DNA from: Parapedobacter lycopersici | GTDB taxonomy: Bacteria; Bacteroidota; Bacteroidia; Sphingobacteriales; Sphingobacteriaceae | Direction: 5' to 3' | Assembly: GCF_024643285.1 (NCBI RefSeq) | Contig: NZ_JAMSLW010000002.1 | Span: 434,001-498,000, forward strand | DNA: 64,000 nucleotides | Shown: piece after piece, positions 36,526-43,700 of the stretch | Position numbering within the stretch: position 1 is the stretch's first letter | Layout of the letters: every line of letters starts with the position of its first letter | Notes under the pieces: generated by a model | Told to the model about the DNA's origin: nothing | Database searches by the model: none | Seen by the model: the letters and a program-made list of their open reading frames with translations, nothing else | Position numbers and translations under genes: made by a program

Positions 36526-36906
36526 CTATTTGCTGATCATTGGCAGGTACTTCCGGCGATTCTCGATAATGACCCAGATATTGATGGCCATAATAAAGAG
36601 CGCAACCGGTAATCCGGACGGTGCTACGGTTGAATGTACGCACAGCACCCCGACCGTAATGGGCAGGATGACAATGGCCCCAAGTGCCCGGGACCTTGCC
36701 GGGATAAAAAGCACGCCGCCGATAATTTCGATGGCGGCCACCAACGGCATCAGCCAGCTGACTTCCATCAGTGCCATGCTGTCCTTGATCAGCTCTTCCG
36801 GCAGGTCAGGGGGTACCGGCATGTAATTAAAAATTTTGTTCAATCCCGAGTTGATGTAACCCAATCCGAATAAGAGACTCAGTACAAATAAAATTTTCGC
36901 TTTCAT
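36526..36906 (-). CDS. DoxX-family membrane protein
   Basis: A 126-residue protein with four hydrophobic helices (about 5-22, 45-66, 70-88, 96-115); SLLFGLGYINSGLNKIF and the later IEIIGGVLFIPARSRALGAI are DoxX-like. It is divergent from the Rrf2 regulator across a 298-bp region, which suggests shared control with the respiratory cluster, although no exact copy of the Rrf2-cluster 17-mer was found on its side. The physiological role of the family is not clear. Confidence 0.78.
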   Translation of the reverse strand: MKAKILFVLSLLFGLGYINSGLNKIFNYMPVPPDLPEELIKDSMALMEVSWLMPLVAAIEIIGGVLFIPARSRALGAIVILPITVGVLCVHSTVAPSGLPVALFIMAINIWVIIENRRKYLPMISK

Positions 36907-37153
36907 CGTGTTAATTTTTAACGTTTATAATTGTTCAATAATAAAATATATTCCTCAATCATCTTTTCCTTCTCATCATCTTTCTGCCCTGGTTAAAGCA
37001 AAATTCCTGATAAAATCCGACAATAGGGTGGTGTGAAAGTGTCATCTTTGAGGGGTTATCACGACAAAATACTGCCATTGATGCAATATCCTCCCGAATA
37101 AGTAATAAACACTTGTTTTCAGTCCGGAAGGGTTGCCAAAAAAATAAAAGAGT

Positions 37154-37186
37154 TTTTTGTCTTTTATTAAAATAACATTACTTTTG
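37154..37186 (+). promoter_or_regulatory. Rrf2 gene promoter with overlapping 17-bp candidate operator
   Basis: TTG (37157-37159), 19 bp, then TACTTTTG (37179-37186) form a complete promoter. The 17-mer TTTTTGTCTTTTATTAA (37154-37170) overlaps the -33 element and recurs inverted at 37651-37667, upstream of the oxidase gene. Such placement fits autorepression. Binding by the Rrf2 protein is inference. Confidence 0.65.
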
Positions 37187-37204
37187 TACCATAAACAAAC
37201 GTGA

Positions 37205-37639
37205 ATGTTCTCTAAAACCTGCGAGTATGCAATAAGGGCTGTGATCTTCATCGCACGCGAGTCGAAAGACGGACGGCGTGTCGGTGTCCGGGAAATTGCC
37301 CAAGGCATCGGTTCACCGGTGTATTTCATCGCCAAAATTCTGCAGGAGCTCAGTAAAAAGGGGATTATCCAGTCGCTGAAAGGCCCCACCGGCGGATTCT
37401 ATATGGACGGACAATCACTCGATTATACGTTAGCCGATATCGTGGTGGCCATTGACGGCGATAAACTGCTCACCGGCTGCGCGCTCGGGCTAAATGAATG
37501 TTCGGAGAAACGGCCCTGCCCCCTGCACTTTGAATTCAGACATATCCGAAAGGAACTGCACGCGCTGCTGGCGCGGACGAAACTGAATGAATTACAGGAT
37601 AAATTTGATGCCTCCATCTTCTATCTGGGCAGCAAATAA
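37205..37639 (+). CDS. Rrf2-family Fe-S transcriptional regulator
   Basis: A 144-residue winged-helix regulator. The DNA-binding part is MFSKTCEYAIRAVIFIA to about residue 65, including VREIAQGIGSPVYFIAKILQ. The sensing region has three Cys, Cys92-x6-Cys99-x5-Cys105, similar in spacing to the cluster-binding Cys of NsrR and IscR, so it probably binds an iron-sulfur cluster and may sense NO or redox state. It heads the oxidase/haemoglobin/RIC cluster, is divergent from DoxX and has a strong promoter with a candidate operator. NsrR-like function is inferred from context, not shown. Confidence 0.85.
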   Translation: MFSKTCEYAIRAVIFIARESKDGRRVGVREIAQGIGSPVYFIAKILQELSKKGIIQSLKGPTGGFYMDGQSLDYTLADIVVAIDGDKLLTGCALGLNECSEKRPCPLHFEFRHIRKELHALLARTKLNELQDKFDASIFYLGSK

Positions 37640-37650
37640 AATTTTTTGAA

Positions 37651-37667
37651 TTAATAAAAGACAAAAA
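37651..37667 (-). promoter_or_regulatory. Inverted second copy of the 17-bp candidate operator
   Basis: The complement of TTTTTGTCTTTTATTAA, identical in 17 of 17 bases to 37154-37170, ends 18 bp before the oxidase ATG at 37686. It lies in a wider AT-rich dyad (ATTAATA / TATTAAT). No TAnnTTTG box was found in this 46-bp gap, so the site could act as a roadblock or with a nonstandard promoter. Confidence 0.55.
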
Positions 37668-37685
37668 GGTATTAATATCGTTTTT

Positions 37686-39809
37686 ATGACACTTTACGAC
37701 AAAGCAAACCTATCCCTGGTTGGCGTTACATTGCAGGCACCCAATATTTATTCATTGCAGCTCGGCTGGTCCGAGTTGGCAATGGGTGCACTCGTCGTTA
37801 TGCTCCTGGTACTGCTTGGGGTACTGTTATCGTTATACCGGCGGGTTGCTGCCATCCGTAACAGCATCCAAGGTGGGTTTGATAACCGGATCAGACGTCA
37901 GCTCAGCCAGCTCAACGGTCGCCAGTTGGACACTGTGCTGCAACACAAAAAACAGGGTGGTCAAAAACGGGGTACCCTCGCAGCATCGGGAAAAGCGGTG
38001 CTACTGATGATGGCGCTACTGGCTGGCCTCCCTGCGTGGGCGCAGCCCGACGGTGCTGTTTCGGGAATTGCCTGGGGCAGTGCCGGCATTGTCATCACCC
38101 TCGTACTTATACTTATCCCTGTACTCTGTGGCCTCGTTTTAATGGTCGTAAAGATCCGGCGGACACTAACCCGCTACCAACGCCGGCAGCACAGTGCGCT
38201 GGCCGATGAATTCGCCCAGTACCTGGATGGACTGACAAAGAAAGAAGAACTGGATCAGTTGACCAGCCGGAAATCGGCGCTGGATTACCAGCTGACAAAC
38301 ACCGAACTTGCCGGCGACGGCGACGTGCACGACAGGCGGGGTCTGGTAGCATCCGCGAGCAGCGACTTGAATCTGCCCATTGCCGCGCCAAAAAAACGGG
38401 CGGTACGCCGGCCCAATATAGACAGTAACCTGGCCAAACTGGTGCTGTGGTACATCGGCACCTCAGCATTCTGGCTGCTATTCGGCACAACGGTTGGTCA
38501 ATACCTCGGCATCAAATTTCTGGCGCCGGACGCCGACCAGCTAAGCTGGCTGAGTTTTGGCCGGCTCCGTCCCGTACACACCAATGCGGTATTCTGGGGA
38601 TGGGCATCACTGGGAATGCTGGGGCTGGGCTACTACATTGTACCCCGGGTAAGTAATACATCCATCGCAAACCTGCGGCACGGCTGGCTTTCGCTGATCC
38701 TGATTAACGCTACAGTCGTGCTGGGTACAGTTAGCCTGATGGCAGGTATCAACAATGGCGGCGGCGAATACCGCGAATACATCTGGCCGGTCATGCTCCC
38801 GTTTGCAGTGGCATTGGTGCTCACCCTGACCAATTTCCTAAAAACCATTGCCCGCCGGAAAACTACGGAAATCTACATCTCCAACTGGTATATGATTTCG
38901 GCCATTATTTTCACGATTGTCATTGCACTGGTGGCCTATCTTCCTTTTTGGCAGAATGGTCTCGGTGAAATTATTGTACAGGGTTACTACATGCACCAGG
39001 GTGTGGGCATGTGGTTTATGCTTTTTACATTGGGTATTGTATACTACTTCCTGCCGCAGCAGCTTAATAAACCGATCTACTCCTACAGCCTCGGCATACT
39101 GGCCTTTTGGACGCAGATTTTATTTTACACGCTGATTGGCACCCACCACTTCATCTTCAGCGCCATTCCCTGGTGGCTGCAGACCGTGGCCATCGTGGGC
39201 AGTGCGGGCATGGCCATTCCGGTAGTGGCCGGCACCACCAATTTCCTGATGACATTCAAAGGCGCCTGGTATAAAGTGAAAGACAGTTACACGCTTCCTT
39301 TCTTCCTGGCCGGTATCATCTTTTATTTTACCGGTTCCATGCAGGGTACCGCCGAGGCGTTCCGGTATACCAACCTCATCTGGCATTTCACCGACTTTAC
39401 GGTGGCCCACTCGCACCTCACCATGTACGGCATCATCTCCTTCCTCCTTTGGGGAAGCATCTATGCCGTAGTGCCGCGCCTCACGGGACAGGAACCTCCC
39501 CAACTCACTGTTGGGGCTCATTTCTGGTTCTCGCTCATCGGCCTTATGTTCTATACCGTACCGCTCATGTATGGCAGTTCCTTACGGGGCCTGATGTGGA
39601 TGGACGGAAAGCCGTTTATTGACAGTGTGGTACTGATGGCCCCCTACTGGCTATGGCGGGCCATCGGAGGCACCCTGATGTGGCTCTCGCACCTGCTGTT
39701 CGCCTATAACCTTTACAAAATGTACAGCACAGACAAACAATCGAACATCGTCGAAGAAGCACTCGAAAAACTGACCGGAAACGACGCACAGGTCACGCAA
39801 ACAAAGTAA
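37686..39809 (+). CDS. ccoN: C-family (cbb3-like) haem-copper oxidase subunit I with long N-terminal extension
   Basis: A 707-residue membrane protein. Residues from about 245 on align with CcoN: GRLRPVHTN with haem His298, YYMHQG with CuB-ligand His437, Tyr481 at the place of the cross-linked Tyr, His487-His488 and the haem pair His575/His577. Spacings from His437 to His577 are identical to those I recall for Pseudomonas stutzeri CcoN (His207 to His347). The conserved Glu323 of that enzyme is Gln553 here. An extension of about 240 residues with three hydrophobic segments (about 30-50, 101-119, 128-157) precedes the core. The retained Tyr favours an oxygen-reducing enzyme; the cluster context favours NO stress. 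Function is therefore open. Confidence 0.85.
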   Translation: MTLYDKANLSLVGVTLQAPNIYSLQLGWSELAMGALVVMLLVLLGVLLSLYRRVAAIRNSIQGGFDNRIRRQLSQLNGRQLDTVLQHKKQGGQKRGTLAASGKAVLLMMALLAGLPAWAQPDGAVSGIAWGSAGIVITLVLILIPVLCGLVLMVVKIRRTLTRYQRRQHSALADEFAQYLDGLTKKEELDQLTSRKSALDYQLTNTELAGDGDVHDRRGLVASASSDLNLPIAAPKKRAVRRPNIDSNLAKLVLWYIGTSAFWLLFGTTVGQYLGIKFLAPDADQLSWLSFGRLRPVHTNAVFWGWASLGMLGLGYYIVPRVSNTSIANLRHGWLSLILINATVVLGTVSLMAGINNGGGEYREYIWPVMLPFAVALVLTLTNFLKTIARRKTTEIYISNWYMISAIIFTIVIALVAYLPFWQNGLGEIIVQGYYMHQGVGMWFMLFTLGIVYYFLPQQLNKPIYSYSLGILAFWTQILFYTLIGTHHFIFSAIPWWLQTVAIVGSAGMAIPVVAGTTNFLMTFKGAWYKVKDSYTLPFFLAGIIFYFTGSMQGTAEAFRYTNLIWHFTDFTVAHSHLTMYGIISFLLWGSIYAVVPRLTGQEPPQLTVGAHFWFSLIGLMFYTVPLMYGSSLRGLMWMDGKPFIDSVVLMAPYWLWRAIGGTLMWLSHLLFAYNLYKMYSTDKQSNIVEEALEKLTGNDAQVTQTK

Positions 39810-39821
39810 TGATAAGCACCC

Positions 39822-40823
39822 ATGGAATTTTTCAACAACCATACTAAACTCTTCACCACCGCCTTTCTCTTCTTCGCGATACTTACGCTGTTCGTGGTAA
39901 TTATCCCCGCCATCAGCAACCAGCAGCGTAATGCCGAACTGCCGAATGCGGTACCGCTCAGCGAAGATGCCCGGAAGGGCAAGGAACTGTTCATCGCCAA
40001 CGGCTGTGTCGCCTGCCATACGCAGCAGGTGCGTAACGTGGATATGGACAGCCGCTGGGGAAGCCGACCCGGCATCGCCGCCGACTATGCGGGCATGAAG
40101 CGGATGGATATCTGGCGCAATACGGCAACACTCGCCGGCACTGAGCGTACCGGTCCGGATCTCACCGATGTAGGCAACAGGCAACCGAGTCTCGACTGGA
40201 ACCTGGTTCACCTCTATAATCCGCGGATTGTGGTTAAAGAATCCATTATGCCGGCTTACCCCTGGTTATTTGAATACAAAACCGTGCTTTCAAAAGGAGA
40301 CGTGACTGTAACCGTACCCGAAGCCTTCCTCAATGGCAAAGGAGGAAAAGTAGTAGCAAAAAAAGAGGCCCTGCAGCTCGTCGCTTACCTGCAATCATTG
40401 AAACAGGTGGAATTACCGGGAGAAAGCCGGACGCCCCAGTTCCTTTATAAAAGAGAAGCGGACGCAGCAGACAGCTCCGGCGAGACCACCGCGGGAGCCG
40501 ATGGTGCCCTGCTCTACGCCAATAACTGCCAGGCATGCCACCAAGCCGATGGAAAAGGGCTGCCCGGCGCGTTTCCCCCGCTGGCCGGCAGCCCGGTAGT
40601 AACCGGCGATGACCTATCGTTGTATGTAGACATTATCATGAACGGTTATGACGCACGCCCGGAATACGGCGCCATGCCCGGTGTGGGTACGATGATGGGT
40701 TTTTCCGCCGGGGAAGTTGCAGCCATTATTAATCATGAACGGACCAGCTGGGGCAACGGCGGCAAACAGGTGACGACCGAAGAAGTACAGGAAATTTTAA
40801 CCCTATTGGAAACAGCGAACTAA
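39822..40823 (+). CDS. ccoO: CcoO-like cytochrome c with a second cytochrome c domain
   Basis: A 333-residue membrane-anchored dihaem cytochrome. An N-terminal helix (about 9-30) is followed by a CcoO domain with the haem site CVACH near residue 62-66, TGPDLTDVGNR and the Met-ligand region KESIMPAYPWL near 147. A second, CcoP-like cytochrome c domain begins near residue 225 with CQACH at about 237-241 and a Met-rich end (GAMPGVGTMMGF). It starts 12 bp after the subunit I gene. No separate CcoP, CcoQ or assembly genes (CcoG, CcoI, CcoS) follow, so this fusion may replace CcoP. Confidence 0.88.
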   Translation: MEFFNNHTKLFTTAFLFFAILTLFVVIIPAISNQQRNAELPNAVPLSEDARKGKELFIANGCVACHTQQVRNVDMDSRWGSRPGIAADYAGMKRMDIWRNTATLAGTERTGPDLTDVGNRQPSLDWNLVHLYNPRIVVKESIMPAYPWLFEYKTVLSKGDVTVTVPEAFLNGKGGKVVAKKEALQLVAYLQSLKQVELPGESRTPQFLYKREADAADSSGETTAGADGALLYANNCQACHQADGKGLPGAFPPLAGSPVVTGDDLSLYVDIIMNGYDARPEYGAMPGVGTMMGFSAGEVAAIINHERTSWGNGGKQVTTEEVQEILTLLETAN

Positions 40824-40943
40824 GATGCGACCGTCATGTACGGCAACAAAAACTCACATACAGATGAAACCTGCATAAATTGCCCGATACACAAAAGAAC
40901 AGGAGTAATTCACGCAAGATTCATTGCCTTAAAAGTAAATCAA

Positions 40944-41222
40944 ATGAAAAAAAGAATATATACCCTCCTGGGTCTGATGCTCCCCGCCCTTACCGGGTTG
41001 GCGTGCCCGGTGTGCGAAAGGCAGCAGCCGAAACTGCTTCAGGGAATAACGCACGGTTCGGGGCCAGCCAGCGACTGGGACTACGTGATTATCGCCGTAA
41101 TGGTGGCAATCGTTGTCTTTACCGGCTATTTCTCCATTAAGATGCTGGTAAGGCCGGGAGAAAACACGCCGAATCATATTAAACATACCATATTAACTTT
41201 GGAAGATGGCAGCGAAAAGTAA
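40944..41222 (+). CDS. Small exported membrane protein with CPVC motif
   Basis: A 92-residue protein. Residues 1-20 look like a signal peptide, followed at once by Cys21-Pro-Val-Cys24, a CxxC that could be redox active or bind copper on the periplasmic side; a single helix (about 46-67) anchors it. The start at 40944 was preferred to 40836 because MKKRIYTLLGLML is a clean signal sequence. It overlaps the next gene by 17 bp. I do not recognise a named family; its place in the oxidase cluster suggests an assembly or accessory role. Confidence 0.65.
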   Translation: MKKRIYTLLGLMLPALTGLACPVCERQQPKLLQGITHGSGPASDWDYVIIAVMVAIVVFTGYFSIKMLVRPGENTPNHIKHTILTLEDGSEK

Positions 41223-41613
41223 AGTCATAATCTACATCGATGACGAGCCCAACCCCATCGCGGCTTTCGATACCCCGGTTAATTTCGAACTGGATACCCG
41301 GAAGCTGGTTGATGGCCAGCATGAGCTCACCATCATCAGTAAGGATCCGACGGGCAAGGAAGGGATCCGCAAGGTCCCCTTTGAAGTGCGGAATGGGCCT
41401 GCCATCAGCATCGAGGGTATCCGGGAAAACGCCGTGGTGGACGGCATCGTGCCGCTCATGATCAATGCATACGGGAAAGGCGATCAGAAAGACTTTCTGA
41501 TCTCAGGGAGTGAAACTCCCCAAAGCATACCTGCCTGGGTATGGATTTTGATTATTGGTTTTGCAGGGTGGGCATTATTCTATCTATTTAGGTATTTTGC
41601 AATGCCGCTATAA
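41206..41613 (+). CDS. Membrane-tethered beta-domain protein of the oxidase cluster
   Basis: A 135-residue protein. The first 95 residues are beta-rich with an immunoglobulin-like pattern (KVIIYIDDEPNPIAAFDTPV, LVDGQHELTIISKDPTGKEG) and no signal peptide; a single helix follows at about 109-131 (IPAWVWILIIGFAGWALFYLF). The topology is that of a C-tail anchor. No haem or metal motif is visible. Its start lies inside the 3' end of the CPVC gene, which points to coupled translation. Function unknown. Confidence 0.65.
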   Translation: MAAKSKVIIYIDDEPNPIAAFDTPVNFELDTRKLVDGQHELTIISKDPTGKEGIRKVPFEVRNGPAISIEGIRENAVVDGIVPLMINAYGKGDQKDFLISGSETPQSIPAWVWILIIGFAGWALFYLFRYFAMPL

Positions 41614-41621
41614 GGCGTCAA

Positions 41622-42029
41622 ATGGGAACGATCATGGAAAAGAAAAACGACATCACAACAATTGCCGATATCCAGCAGCTGGTAGACACATTTTACGGCA
41701 AGGTAAGGGAAAATCCATTAATAGGACCAATCTTCAATGGCGTAATCGGCGACCGCTGGCCGGAGCATCTCGCAAAAATGTACCGGTTCTGGCAAACGGT
41801 GCTGTTCGGCGAACACACGTATTTTGGCAGTCCATTCCCCCCACATGCCCAGCTTCCGGTGGATCGGCGGCACTTCGACACCTGGTTGGGGCTGTGGCAC
41901 GGCACCATTGACCAGTTTTTTGAAGGAGAGAAGGCAACCGAGGCAAAATGGCGGGGTGATAAGATGGCCGAAATGTTTCTCTCCAAAATCGATTACTTCA
42001 GAAATAATCAATCATCCCCGCTGTTATGA
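41622..42029 (+). CDS. Group III truncated haemoglobin
   Basis: A 135-residue 2-on-2 globin. The proximal His is in RRHFDTWLGLW (about residue 88), and the motif YRFWQTVLFGEHTYFGSPFPPHAQL is typical of the group III (trHbP) family. Such globins bind O2 and NO and often accompany nitrosative-stress genes. An alternative Met at position 5 (MEKKND) is a likely start too. The last 4 bp overlap the following membrane-protein gene (ATGA). Confidence 0.88.
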   Translation: MGTIMEKKNDITTIADIQQLVDTFYGKVRENPLIGPIFNGVIGDRWPEHLAKMYRFWQTVLFGEHTYFGSPFPPHAQLPVDRRHFDTWLGLWHGTIDQFFEGEKATEAKWRGDKMAEMFLSKIDYFRNNQSSPLL

Positions 42030-42469
42030 GTACCCTCGTTAAACAACCTACTGCGGTTGCCTGTCTTTTTATCTGGATCGGCATTGTCTGCGGCATCAGT
42101 TTCCTGGAAGCCTGGCTTAAATTCCGCGCACCCGGTGTCACGATGCCGATCGGCCTGGGCATCGGCCGCCTCGTTTTCAATGCCCTCAACAAAGTAGAAT
42201 GGGTACTTGCCGCCATCGTTGTGGTCACCGCGGTGATGCACACCAATACGCTGTTTTCAGCCAGAAATGCATTTCTGCTCCTGGCAGTTATCATCCTCAT
42301 CCTGCAAACGGCGTGGCTGTTGCCCACATTGGATGCCCGGGCTCAACTGGTTATCGAAAACAAGCCGCTTCCACCCTCCAATCTTCATTACCTGTTCATT
42401 GGGGCGGAAGTGCTGAAAATTGCAGGCCTCTTTGCCGCGGCAATCGGCCACTTTGAAAAAATTACTTAA
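42026..42469 (+). CDS. Four-helix membrane protein of unknown function
   Basis: A 147-residue integral membrane protein with helices at about 9-29, 57-76, 82-102 and 122-142. It is coupled to the globin gene by an ATGA overlap and is followed after 10 bp by the RIC gene, so it belongs to the stress cluster. Few polar residues lie within the helices; no haem-binding His pair stands out. I do not recognise a named family. An accessory membrane role next to RIC and the globin is inference. Confidence 0.7.
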   Translation: MSTLVKQPTAVACLFIWIGIVCGISFLEAWLKFRAPGVTMPIGLGIGRLVFNALNKVEWVLAAIVVVTAVMHTNTLFSARNAFLLLAVIILILQTAWLLPTLDARAQLVIENKPLPPSNLHYLFIGAEVLKIAGLFAAAIGHFEKIT

Positions 42470-42479
42470 AAATACTGCC

Positions 42480-43208
42480 ATGGAAATTACAACCCAACAT
42501 ACTGTCGGCCAGGTGGTCGCCAGAGACTACCGCTCGGCCGCCGTATTCAGCAAGGCCGGAATCGATTTCTGCTGTGGAGGCAACCGGACCATTGACGAAG
42601 CCTGCCAGCAGGCAGGTGTCGCCCCTGCTCCCCTGATTGACGCCCTAAAGACCGCCCTTACGACGGATCAGGGTACCGGGGAAAACGACTACGATGCGTG
42701 GCCGCTTGACATGCTCGCCGACCATATTGAAGAAACACATCACCGCTATGTCGAATCCAGGATCTCGGAAATTACGCCGCTGCTTCAGAAAATAAAAACA
42801 GTGCATGGCGACTGCCATCCGGAACTTGCCCGGATAATGGACTTGTTTACGGAAGCCGGCGGGGAACTCACTTTGCACATGAAGAAAGAAGAGCTGATGC
42901 TCTTCCCGTTTATCCGGCGGATGGCACAGGCACAGCGCCAAGGGGAACCGCTGCTGCCCTCCCGCTTCGGGACGGTAGCCAACCCGATCGCCATGATGGA
43001 GCACGACCACGATGGCGAAGGTGAGCGTTTCCGCCAGATTGCCGCGCTGTCCGGAAATTACACTCCCCCATCGGATGCCTGCAACACCTACCGGGTAACC
43101 CTGGCCCTGCTGCAGGAATTTGAAGCCGACCTCCACCTGCATATTCACCTGGAAAATAACATCCTATTTCCGAAAGCCGTCCAAATGGAAAGCGAGCTGT
43201 CGTCCTGA
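42480..43208 (+). CDS. ric: Iron-sulfur cluster repair di-iron protein RIC (YtfE/ScdA)
   Basis: A 242-residue protein of the RIC family that repairs Fe-S clusters damaged by NO or peroxide. The N-terminal ScdA_N domain has TVGQVVARDYRSAAVFSKAG then FCCGG with the paired Cys near residues 33-34. The C-terminal hemerythrin-like domain has the di-iron ligands spread over HIEETHHRYV, CHPELARIM, TLHMKKEE, EHDHDGEG and HIHLEN. The chosen ATG at 42480 avoids an overlap with the preceding gene and gives the family-typical start. Gene context (globin, Rrf2) fits its known role. Confidence 0.93.
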   Translation: MEITTQHTVGQVVARDYRSAAVFSKAGIDFCCGGNRTIDEACQQAGVAPAPLIDALKTALTTDQGTGENDYDAWPLDMLADHIEETHHRYVESRISEITPLLQKIKTVHGDCHPELARIMDLFTEAGGELTLHMKKEELMLFPFIRRMAQAQRQGEPLLPSRFGTVANPIAMMEHDHDGEGERFRQIAALSGNYTPPSDACNTYRVTLALLQEFEADLHLHIHLENNILFPKAVQMESELSS

Positions 43209-43235
43209 CAGCGGGCCAACCCAACAACCGCGATC

Positions 43236-43700
43236 ATGGATAACAAGCCACTGAAAAGAAGCACCTATTTAAAGTCCATCAGCCGCGATCACCACCATGG
43301 ATTGCTGTTCTGCTGGAAAATCCGGGAAGGGTTCAAACGGGGTGTCGCCGCGGATCGCATTAAACAGTATGCCGACTGGTTCTGGCGAGCGCACCTCATC
43401 GATCATTTCGAAGTGGAAGAGCGGTACATCTTTCCTGTTCTTGGCAACGGTCACGAACTGGTGAAACGGGCGCTTGCCGAGCATAGGCGACTGAAACGGC
43501 TGTTCGAACAGGAAACGGAAGTGTGGCGCTCCCTAAGTTTGATCGAAGAGGAGCTGGACGAACACATCCGTTTTGAGGAGCGGGTGCTGTTCAGCGAGTT
43601 ACAGCGCCTGGCCACTACCCCGCAGCTGGCGGAAATAGCCGAACACCACGGCGACGCGGCGCATGTTCAGGAGTGGGGCGACGAATTCTGGAAAGACTAG
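43236..43700 (+). CDS. Hemerythrin-domain protein
   Basis: A 154-residue soluble four-helix protein. Candidate iron ligands are in SRDHHHGLLF, HLIDHFEVEERYIFP, AEHRRLKRL and LDEHIRFEERVLF, the order seen in HHE hemerythrin proteins. It differs from RIC by lacking the CCGG domain. The role could be O2 or NO binding or iron handling. It is the last gene of the cluster, 27 bp after ric, and its stop overlaps the convergent mfd stop by 4 bp. Confidence 0.85.
   Translation: MDNKPLKRSTYLKSISRDHHHGLLFCWKIREGFKRGVAADRIKQYADWFWRAHLIDHFEVEERYIFPVLGNGHELVKRALAEHRRLKRLFEQETEVWRSLSLIEEELDEHIRFEERVLFSELQRLATTPQLAEIAEHHGDAAHVQEWGDEFWKD

What the first reader, a model, noticed from the sequence alone, without database searches (positions are those of the whole stretch)
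37686..39809. Haem-copper oxidase subunit with Glu323-to-Gln change
From the CuB His437 to the haem His577 the spacing of catalytic residues equals that of Pseudomonas stutzeri CcoN as I remember it (207, 251, 257/258, 345/347). Tyr481, His487/488 and His575/577 are kept, but Glu323, described as strictly conserved and in contact with the proximal His of the active-site haem, is Gln553. The enzyme sits with NO-stress genes. This may be an oxygen-reducing enzyme with altered haem chemistry, or an unrecognised NO-reducing relative.
Basis: partly seen in the sequence, partly recalled or inferred. Interest (0 to 1): 0.7.

Follow-up and report, generated by a model that had tools for sequence, protein, structure and literature searches.

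The report
Nitric-oxide-stress relative of cbb3 oxidase
A respiratory enzyme related to bacterial oxygen-using oxidases sits in a conserved nitric-oxide-stress gene set of Bacteroidota and carries an unusual residue beside its active-site haem, but that residue marks several old branches of the enzyme family and is not itself a sign of nitric oxide use.

Summary
The residue reading is right. Window 37686-39809 encodes a C-family (cbb3-class) haem-copper catalytic subunit. CuB His437/487/488, Tyr481 and His575/577 keep exact P. stutzeri spacing; Gln553 replaces Glu323. But Glu is not general in the family. In 167 C-family rows read (159 distinct loci), Glu goes with Leu/Met four residues on (26 of 26) and Gln with Glu/Gln/His there (141 of 141; window Glu557). 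On the tree each site changes once, Glu being confined to the canonical cbb3 branch. Gln also occurs in an ordinary cco operon, so it does not itself indicate NO chemistry. What is distinctive is the window's clade (98 distinct loci read): S240 lost, a CcoO-cytochrome c fusion, and a recurring operon with an Rrf2 regulator, truncated haemoglobin, RIC and hemerythrin, preceded in 64 of 105 loci by the palindrome ATAAAAGA-N8-TCTTTTAT, which also stands before some RIC genes. Ordinary CcoNO loci of the same genomes mostly lack these genes. I infer an NO-stress-induced haem-copper reductase, probably reducing NO, possibly an NO-tolerant oxidase. It is not a cNOR/qNOR: the cross-link Tyr is kept and the FeB Glu residues are absent. 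No activity is shown. Denitrification-gene co-occurrence did not discriminate.

The parts
37144..37167 (+). Operator ATAAAAGA-N8-TCTTTTAT, perfect inverted repeat
   Evidence: Exact in window; 68 sites (at most 2 mismatches) before Rrf2 or the CcoN gene in 64 of 105 clade loci (97 distinct genomes), 8 sites before RIC (7 distinct), 3 before hemerythrin (in 2 loci); 0 hits in mononucleotide shuffles of 40 loci
37156..37186 (+). Possible Bacteroidota-type promoter TTTG-N19-TACTTTTG, its first element inside the operator (consensus recalled)
   Evidence: TAnnTTTG lies within 75 bp of the start of 54 of 68 operators, most often 37-39 bp from it, but the full TTTG-N18-20-TAnnTTTG only in 5 of 68
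37205..37639 (+). Rrf2-family regulator with Cys-X6-Cys-X5-Cys-X2-His
   Evidence: PF02082 and TIGR00738 over cut-off; motif in 65 of 69 immediately upstream Rrf2
37686..39809 (+). CcoN-like catalytic subunit, Gln553/Glu557 type, with N-terminal extension (about residues 1-238)
   Evidence: PF00115 274 bits, TIGR00780 250.7 of 583.15 bits; residues
39822..40823 (+). CcoO (FixO) fused to a second cytochrome c domain, two CXXCH
   Evidence: PF02433 92 bits, PF00034 59.7 bits; a hit to it near 79 of 80 named and 25 of 26 clade genes
40944..41222 (+). Small conserved membrane protein with CPVC motif (ORF from 40836; conserved part from Met at 40944)
   Evidence: No family; 70 of 80 named clade loci; motif
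41206..41613 (+). Small conserved protein with hydrophobic C-terminal stretch
   Evidence: No family; 72 of 80 named clade loci
41622..42029 (+). Truncated haemoglobin (bacterial globin)
   Evidence: PF01152 29.3 bits; 51 of 80 named clade loci, 0 of 19 control loci
42026..42469 (+). Hydrophobic protein of unknown function
   Evidence: No family; 14 of 80 named clade loci
42480..43208 (+). RIC/YtfE/ScdA iron-sulfur repair di-iron protein
   Evidence: TIGR03652 234.6 bits, over its cut-off of 204.7
43236..43700 (+). Hemerythrin-domain protein
   Evidence: PF01814 37.1 bits

Best explanation
It is the catalytic subunit of a haem-copper reductase of the C family, probably working with the CcoO-cytochrome c fusion encoded next to it. 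It is made under the control of an iron-sulfur-type Rrf2 regulator as part of an NO-stress regulon of Bacteroidota. Electrons from the cytochrome c domains would reach haem b and then haem b3-CuB, where the enzyme most likely reduces NO to N2O to remove NO, with O2 reduction retained as a second activity. Shown by sequence: family, ligands, Gln553/Glu557 pair, operon, operator. Inferred: NO as inducer, repression, subunit make-up, NO as substrate. The Gln is not the cause; it is the usual state outside the canonical cbb3 branch. My estimates: C-family membership 0.97, NO-responsive regulon 0.8, NO a main physiological substrate 0.45.
For: C-family ligands and cross-link Tyr intact in 106 of 106 clade rows (98 distinct loci). 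Fold match of the (weak) model is best to cbb3 CcoN (TM 0.83), then NOR (0.75). Within 6 kb of the clade gene in 80 named loci: Rrf2 62, truncated Hb 51, RIC 29, hemerythrin 25; in 26 whole genomes 16, 11, 11, 6 (8 genomes in both sets); control CcoNO loci (19, from 19 of the 26 genomes) 2, 0, 1, 0; other Gln groups 0 of 12. Operator before Rrf2/CcoN in 64 of 105 loci, and before RIC (8 sites, 7 distinct) and hemerythrin (3 sites in 2 loci). S240 is Gly in 106 of 106 clade rows (elsewhere only L047) and T215 is Met in 99 of 106 (not so in any other group); I recall S240 as part of the cbb3 proton channel, and NORs as lacking pumping channels. cbb3 enzymes are known to reduce NO (PMC8780969, passages read). 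Eight of 18 nirK-bearing carriers show no qNOR or P0003-type NorB-like gene in my searches (eNOR was not searched).
Against: Tyr481 and CuB-type ligands are kept and the FeB Glu residues of cNOR/qNOR are absent, as in O2 reductases. The review read says NO reduction by oxidases is lower than by NORs and likely limited unless NORs are absent. nirK without a qNOR-type hit is just as common without the clade gene: 35 of 63 nirK-bearing genomes in the phylum sample had no hit, only 3 of the 63 being carriers, 2 of them among the 35. The window's own genome has no nirK over cut-off, no nosZ, no cNOR/qNOR (nirS not searched). qNOR-like genes occur in 16 of 49 named carriers (3 of these at only 36-37% identity; 2 further genomes have 29% matches) and 7 of 30 non-carriers. 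Canonical Glu-type ccoN can also lie beside truncated Hb and Rrf2, or hmpA. 41 of 105 loci lack the operator before Rrf2/CcoN at 2 mismatches.
Confidence: 0.5

Rival explanations
1. An NO-tolerant, high-affinity O2 reductase, induced by NO so that respiration continues while the globin and di-iron proteins deal with NO.
For: Complete O2-reductase active site incl. Tyr481; canonical ccoN is found beside truncated Hb and Rrf2 or hmpA in Ruegeria and Sphingobium plasmids; the Gln-type f52 enzyme sits in an ordinary cco operon.
Against: S240 and, in 99 of 106, T215 are lost in this clade (S240 also in L047); no CcoP, CcoG or Cu ATPase among the ten genes examined.
Confidence: 0.35
2. An ordinary cbb3-like oxidase whose neighbours are only fortuitously NO genes.
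For: No experimental data; neighbours vary among loci.
Against: The order Rrf2-CcoN-CcoO-p128-p135-globin-RIC-HHE, in whole or part, recurs across genomes of several families, and the operator is shared with some RIC and hemerythrin genes; controls largely lack both.
Confidence: 0.08
3. The Glu-to-Gln change itself turns the site into an NO reductase by changing the proximal hydrogen bond of haem b3.
For: Position 323 is recalled to hydrogen-bond the proximal His; a Rhodobacter E383Q mutant is recalled to change the haem b3 spectra (paper not held).
Against: Gln occurs in an ordinary cco operon and in several groups without NO genes near; Gln is coupled to a polar residue at 327 in 141 of 141 rows; the six NOR or NOR-like rows aligned have W, F or L at the column.
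Confidence: 0.05

Closest known systems
cbb3-type cytochrome c oxidase (C-family HCO; CcoN, 3mk7/9g6b)
   Same: Fold, low-spin and high-spin haem ligands, three CuB His, Tyr, CcoO-type cytochrome gene alongside
   Different: About 30% identity; Gln553/Glu557 instead of Glu/Met; W203, S240, H243 not kept; no CcoP among the ten genes examined; NO-stress operon
cNOR/qNOR nitric oxide reductases
   Same: Superfamily and overall fold (TM 0.75); putative NO link
   Different: Keeps Tyr and CuB-type site; Gly and Met where three cNOR/qNOR rows have the two FeB-side Glu (211, 215); Gln where they have W or F
Other Gln-type C-family enzymes (f52 cco operon; L236 Paraburkholderia pBN2; L237 S. meliloti pSymA)
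   Same: Gln at 323 with polar 327, Tyr and CuB His kept
   Different: 31-36% identity to the window; of the 20 rows, W203 is kept in all but the L019/L237 pair and S240 in all but L047; none of the NO genes within 6 kb of 12 loci examined
NO-responsive regulons with RIC/YtfE and globins (NsrR type, recalled)
   Same: Rrf2-family regulator with three Cys; RIC and globin genes in the set
   Different: Regulator fits Rrf2 but not NsrR (PRK11014 30 of 182 bits); operator differs from the NsrR site I recall; includes a haem-copper reductase

Membership tests
C-family (cbb3-class) haem-copper reductase | Three CuB His, haem His, cross-link Tyr in C-family spacing | tested here: met
Canonical CcoN (TIGR00780) | Score over curated cut-off 583.15 | tested here: not met
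   250.7 bits
Canonical CcoN (TIGR00780) | Glu at position 323 | tested here: not met
   Gln; the 14 Glu rows in the tree form the canonical branch, and all 26 Glu rows read have the canonical EGP/EGS motif with Leu/Met at 327
Canonical cbb3 complex | CcoO mono-haem subunit | tested here: met
   PF02433 over cut-off, but fused to a second cytochrome c; NCBIfam CcoO models are below their cut-offs
Canonical cbb3 complex | Diheme CcoP subunit in the operon | tested here: not met
   The ten genes examined, 36526-43700, include no CcoP over its cut-off; only the c domain of the fusion matches, 37.6 of 179.95 bits
cNOR/qNOR | Cross-link Tyr absent (stated distinctive in PMC3084760, passages read) | tested here: not met
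   Tyr481 present; Tyr in 106 of 106 clade rows
cNOR/qNOR | Glu residues near FeB at 211 and 215 (role recalled) | tested here: not met
   Gly and Met in the window; Glu/Glu in both qNOR, one qNOR-like and the Phaeobacter cNOR row
cNOR/qNOR | Tree position with NORs | tested here: inconclusive
   The clade branches nearest the three NOR rows, but these are very long branches and the root is unsure
NO-reducing enzyme (any) | NO to N2O activity | not testable with these tools
   Needs biochemistry
Rrf2-superfamily regulator | TIGR00738 over cut-off | tested here: met
   87.6 bits, cut-off 73.3
NsrR (PRK11014) | Score over cut-off 182 | tested here: not met
   30 bits

The most novel reading that the evidence does not exclude
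A separate origin of physiological NO reduction inside the C family, by an enzyme that keeps CuB and the Tyr cross-link, has altered the canonical proton channel, and is switched on by an Rrf2 NO sensor; and, as a second part, that Gln323/polar 327 is the older state of the C family, with Glu323 a later feature of canonical cbb3.
Probability: 0.35. Interest if true: 0.8.

Novelty: new variant of a known kind. Interest (0 to 1): 0.6.

Why it matters
One search reports 371 genome stretches encoding a relative of this protein; the 80 read, from many Bacteroidota, are all of the clade. By current models it would pass as 'cbb3 subunit I' and be counted as an oxygen-respiration gene. If it reduces NO, N2O budgets and denitrification surveys miss it. 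The paired 323/327 switch offers a natural experiment on what the proximal Glu of cbb3 does for haem b3, a question so far approached by point mutants (recalled).

Tried and rejected
Gln as a sign of NO chemistry: rejected, because Gln is found in groups and an operon without NO genes.

Gln as a sporadic change or sequencing error: rejected; 106 of 106 clade rows have it.

Missing-NOR argument: tested and weak. 8 of 18 nirK-bearing carriers had no qNOR or P0003-type hit, but 35 of 63 nirK-bearing genomes of the phylum sample also had no hit to the qNOR query, and these were not searched for other NOR types. eNOR was searched in neither set. P0003-type proteins, counted here as NOR-like, lack expected ligands. 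nosZ was in 18 of 26 carriers and 12 of 35 same-family non-carriers; the carriers include other families and classes, so kinship is not controlled.

Structure model: 60 clade rows gave mean pLDDT 68 with active-site stretches below 50. I did not use it for side-chain distances; only the overall fold match is quoted. Two scans of viral contigs for more diverse rows returned no locus.

Papers: in the listings of searches I saw no title or abstract start on this clade or on a Gln at this column. Passages were read of PMC10066037, PMC6431628, PMC8780969, PMC3084760 and PMC7876108. The Rhodobacter E383Q paper, the 2024 NOR-diversity paper and PMC4233682 were not held; what I say of E383Q, channels and the NOR families is recall.

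Errors mended: one search read minus-strand loci in the wrong orientation (repaired). One search took the wrong frame for 3 of 20 rows (L275, L278, L279; repaired); the wrong rows were in the tree, so I rely on the trees and use only the 17 good residue rows plus the 3.

Full report
WHAT IS THERE. Window 37686-39809 (+) is an open frame of 707 aa. Pfam COX1 matches residues 251-664 (274 bits). NCBIfam's CcoN model gives 250.7 bits against a cut-off of 583.15, so it is CcoN-like but outside the canonical group. Against PDB sequences the best hits are five CcoN sequences. The residue claims hold exactly: relative to His437 the spacing to Tyr481, His487/488, Gln553, His575 and His577 is 44, 50/51, 116, 138 and 140, as for 207, 251, 257/258, 323, 345 and 347. 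The same genome has four COX1 proteins: two that look A-type (not formally classed), an ordinary CcoN-CcoO fusion (L003) with Glu, and this one.

IS IT MORE THAN CHANCE. All clade rows read have Gln: 26 from whole genomes and 80 named loci; 8 genomes occur in both sets, so 98 are distinct. Every clade row also keeps H60, H207, Y251, H257, H258, Y317, H337, H345 and H347, and has Gly at W203 and S240.

GLN IS WIDESPREAD IN THE C FAMILY. Further relatives at 31-36% identity also have Gln: L047-L059 and L061 (several groups), L019, the f52 genomes, and plasmid proteins of Paraburkholderia aromaticivorans and Sinorhizobium meliloti. Glu was found in the fused Bacteroidota CcoNO proteins, P. stutzeri, Ruegeria, two Sphingobium and Methylophaga. 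Six NOR or NOR-like rows have W, F or L there.

A TWO-SITE SWITCH. The column four residues on varies together with it. Glu323 goes with Leu or Met at 327 in 26 of 26 rows (21, 3, 2). Gln323 goes with Glu, Gln or His at 327 in 141 of 141 (126, 14, 1; 133 distinct). In the window clade position 327 is Glu in 103 of 106 and Gln in 3; the window has Glu557. On the tree without NORs each site changes once. About one helical turn separates them, so an acid may sit near the haem ligands from another place; this is inference, because the model was poor there. Rows are related, so the counts are not independent; the tree says one event.

TREE. With three NOR rows as outgroup (49 rows) or without (46 rows), Glu rows form one clade (100/100), f52 Gln enzymes join it next (100/100), and the window clade is supported at 98/93 and 100/100. 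The NOR branches are very long, and treekit warns of long branches in both trees, so the root, and therefore whether Gln is the older state, is not settled. The one f52 operon annotated (L100) is ccoN (533.6 bits, cut-off 583.15), ccoO, a ccoP-like cytochrome, a CcoG-like protein and a heavy-metal (copper-type) ATPase, an ordinary cbb3 set.

THE NO-STRESS SETTING BELONGS TO THE CLADE, NOT TO GLN. The operon in the window is Rrf2, CcoN, CcoO-cytochrome c, two small proteins, truncated haemoglobin, a hydrophobic protein, RIC and hemerythrin. Within 6 kb of the clade gene: in 80 named loci Rrf2 62, globin 51, RIC 29, hemerythrin 25; in 26 genomes 16, 11, 11 and 6. Around 19 ordinary CcoNO genes from 19 of these 26 genomes the counts are 2, 0, 1 and 0. 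Around 12 other Gln-type loci all are 0 (15 fetched, 3 without a recognised core; one Rrf2 lies about 7 kb off in L092). Some stretches end at contig ends, so counts are lower bounds.

THE OPERATOR. Upstream of Rrf2 in the window lies a perfect palindrome, ATAAAAGA-GTTTTTTG-TCTTTTAT, 37144-37167. It was noticed by counting inverted repeats upstream of 69 Rrf2-led operons. Scanning 105 clade loci (97 distinct genomes; window apart) with up to 2 mismatches gave 92 sites: 51 before Rrf2, 17 directly before CcoN, 8 before RIC (7 distinct), 3 before hemerythrin (2 loci), 13 others; 64 of 105 loci have one before Rrf2 or CcoN. Mononucleotide shuffles of 40 loci gave 0. Control DNA (46 loci, 452.9 kb) gave 2, one of them in a locus that is itself a clade member (L208), the other near an A-type oxidase (L199). 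The 15 g2-g4/f52 loci gave none. Because the motif was found in this set, the fair support is the sites at RIC and hemerythrin genes. In the window the repeat covers the first element of a possible promoter TTTG-N19-TACTTTTG, which would suit repression; but although TAnnTTTG follows 54 of 68 operators, the full two-element spacing was found in only 5 of 68. 65 of 69 adjacent Rrf2 proteins keep C-X-LGL-X2-C-X5-C-X2-H, an iron-sulfur-type sensor by analogy with IscR/NsrR (recalled).

WHAT IT PROBABLY DOES. Active-site metals, Tyr and haem ligands are those of an O2 reductase; the two Glu that cNOR and qNOR rows have at 211 and 215 are Gly and Met. cbb3 enzymes are known to reduce NO, and nitrite, to N2O, though the review says oxidase rates are lower than those of NORs (PMC8780969, passages). 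The clade has lost S240 and, in 99 of 106 rows, T215; W203 is also lost in L019/L237 and H243 in all Gln groups. I recall S240 and H243 as channel residues of cbb3. I judge NO reduction for detoxification a little more likely than NO-tolerant oxygen respiration; both fit the operon.

TESTS THAT DID NOT HELP. nirK over cut-off occurs in 18 of 75 carriers (8 of 26; 10 of 49) and 3 of 35 same-family non-carriers. Eight of the 18 had no qNOR or P0003-type hit (G024, G045, G038, G450, G504, G506, G507, G500); the 3 non-carriers all had qNOR. But in the phylum sample nirK is in 63 of 395 genomes, 35 of these had no qNOR-query hit, and only 3 of the 63 are carriers, so nirK without NOR is not special to carriers. 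The window's genome has neither nirK over cut-off nor nosZ, so any NO it meets is probably from outside (nirS not searched).

VERDICT. Observation confirmed; interpretation partly supported. This is a new variant of a known kind: a clade of C-family haem-copper enzymes in an Rrf2-headed NO-stress gene set. The Gln is a trait shared with other, ordinary-looking members of the family.

Noticed in passing
L220:1030-2472 (-), L221:1070-2461 (-): A NorB-like protein next to a small CXXCH protein; aligned with NORs it has Tyr for the first metal His and Met for the proximal haem His (VAHTMG). Relatives at 41-74% identity in 11 of the other 55 genomes searched, one beside nirK (G493).
   Followed up: partly
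L220:2875-5178 (+) and L220:2824-2847: Divergent from that gene in G469 is a qNOR-like protein with HN in place of the His pair; a 2-mismatch copy of the Rrf2 operator lies about 28 bp before it. Of five qNOR loci scanned (L216-L220), two others had only 3-mismatch sites and two none.
   Followed up: partly
L089 (G099 contig 22): A Gln-type CcoN with a 661-aa CcoO-like protein lies near a 1014-aa protein with eight CXXCH motifs.
   Followed up: no
L237 (S. meliloti R14 pSymA): A Gln-type 'cbb3 subunit I' beside a 1665-base subunit II gene, near groEL, hemA, a TauE/SafE protein and a heavy-metal ATPase.
   Followed up: partly
L199:3224-3247: A perfect copy of the Rrf2 operator upstream of the COX1 (A-type by look) gene in G008.
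   Followed up: no
L238 (Ruegeria pomeroyi megaplasmid), L239 (Sphingobium plasmid): Glu-type ccoN operons near group III truncated haemoglobin and Rrf2, or near hmpA.
   Followed up: no
L222:1025-2749 (-): A 575-aa haem-copper protein resembling eNOR by eye (GHMSQQIN, AHHLLVDPG) in a genome with two nirK and nosZ on the same contig; the name is recalled, not tested.
   Followed up: no
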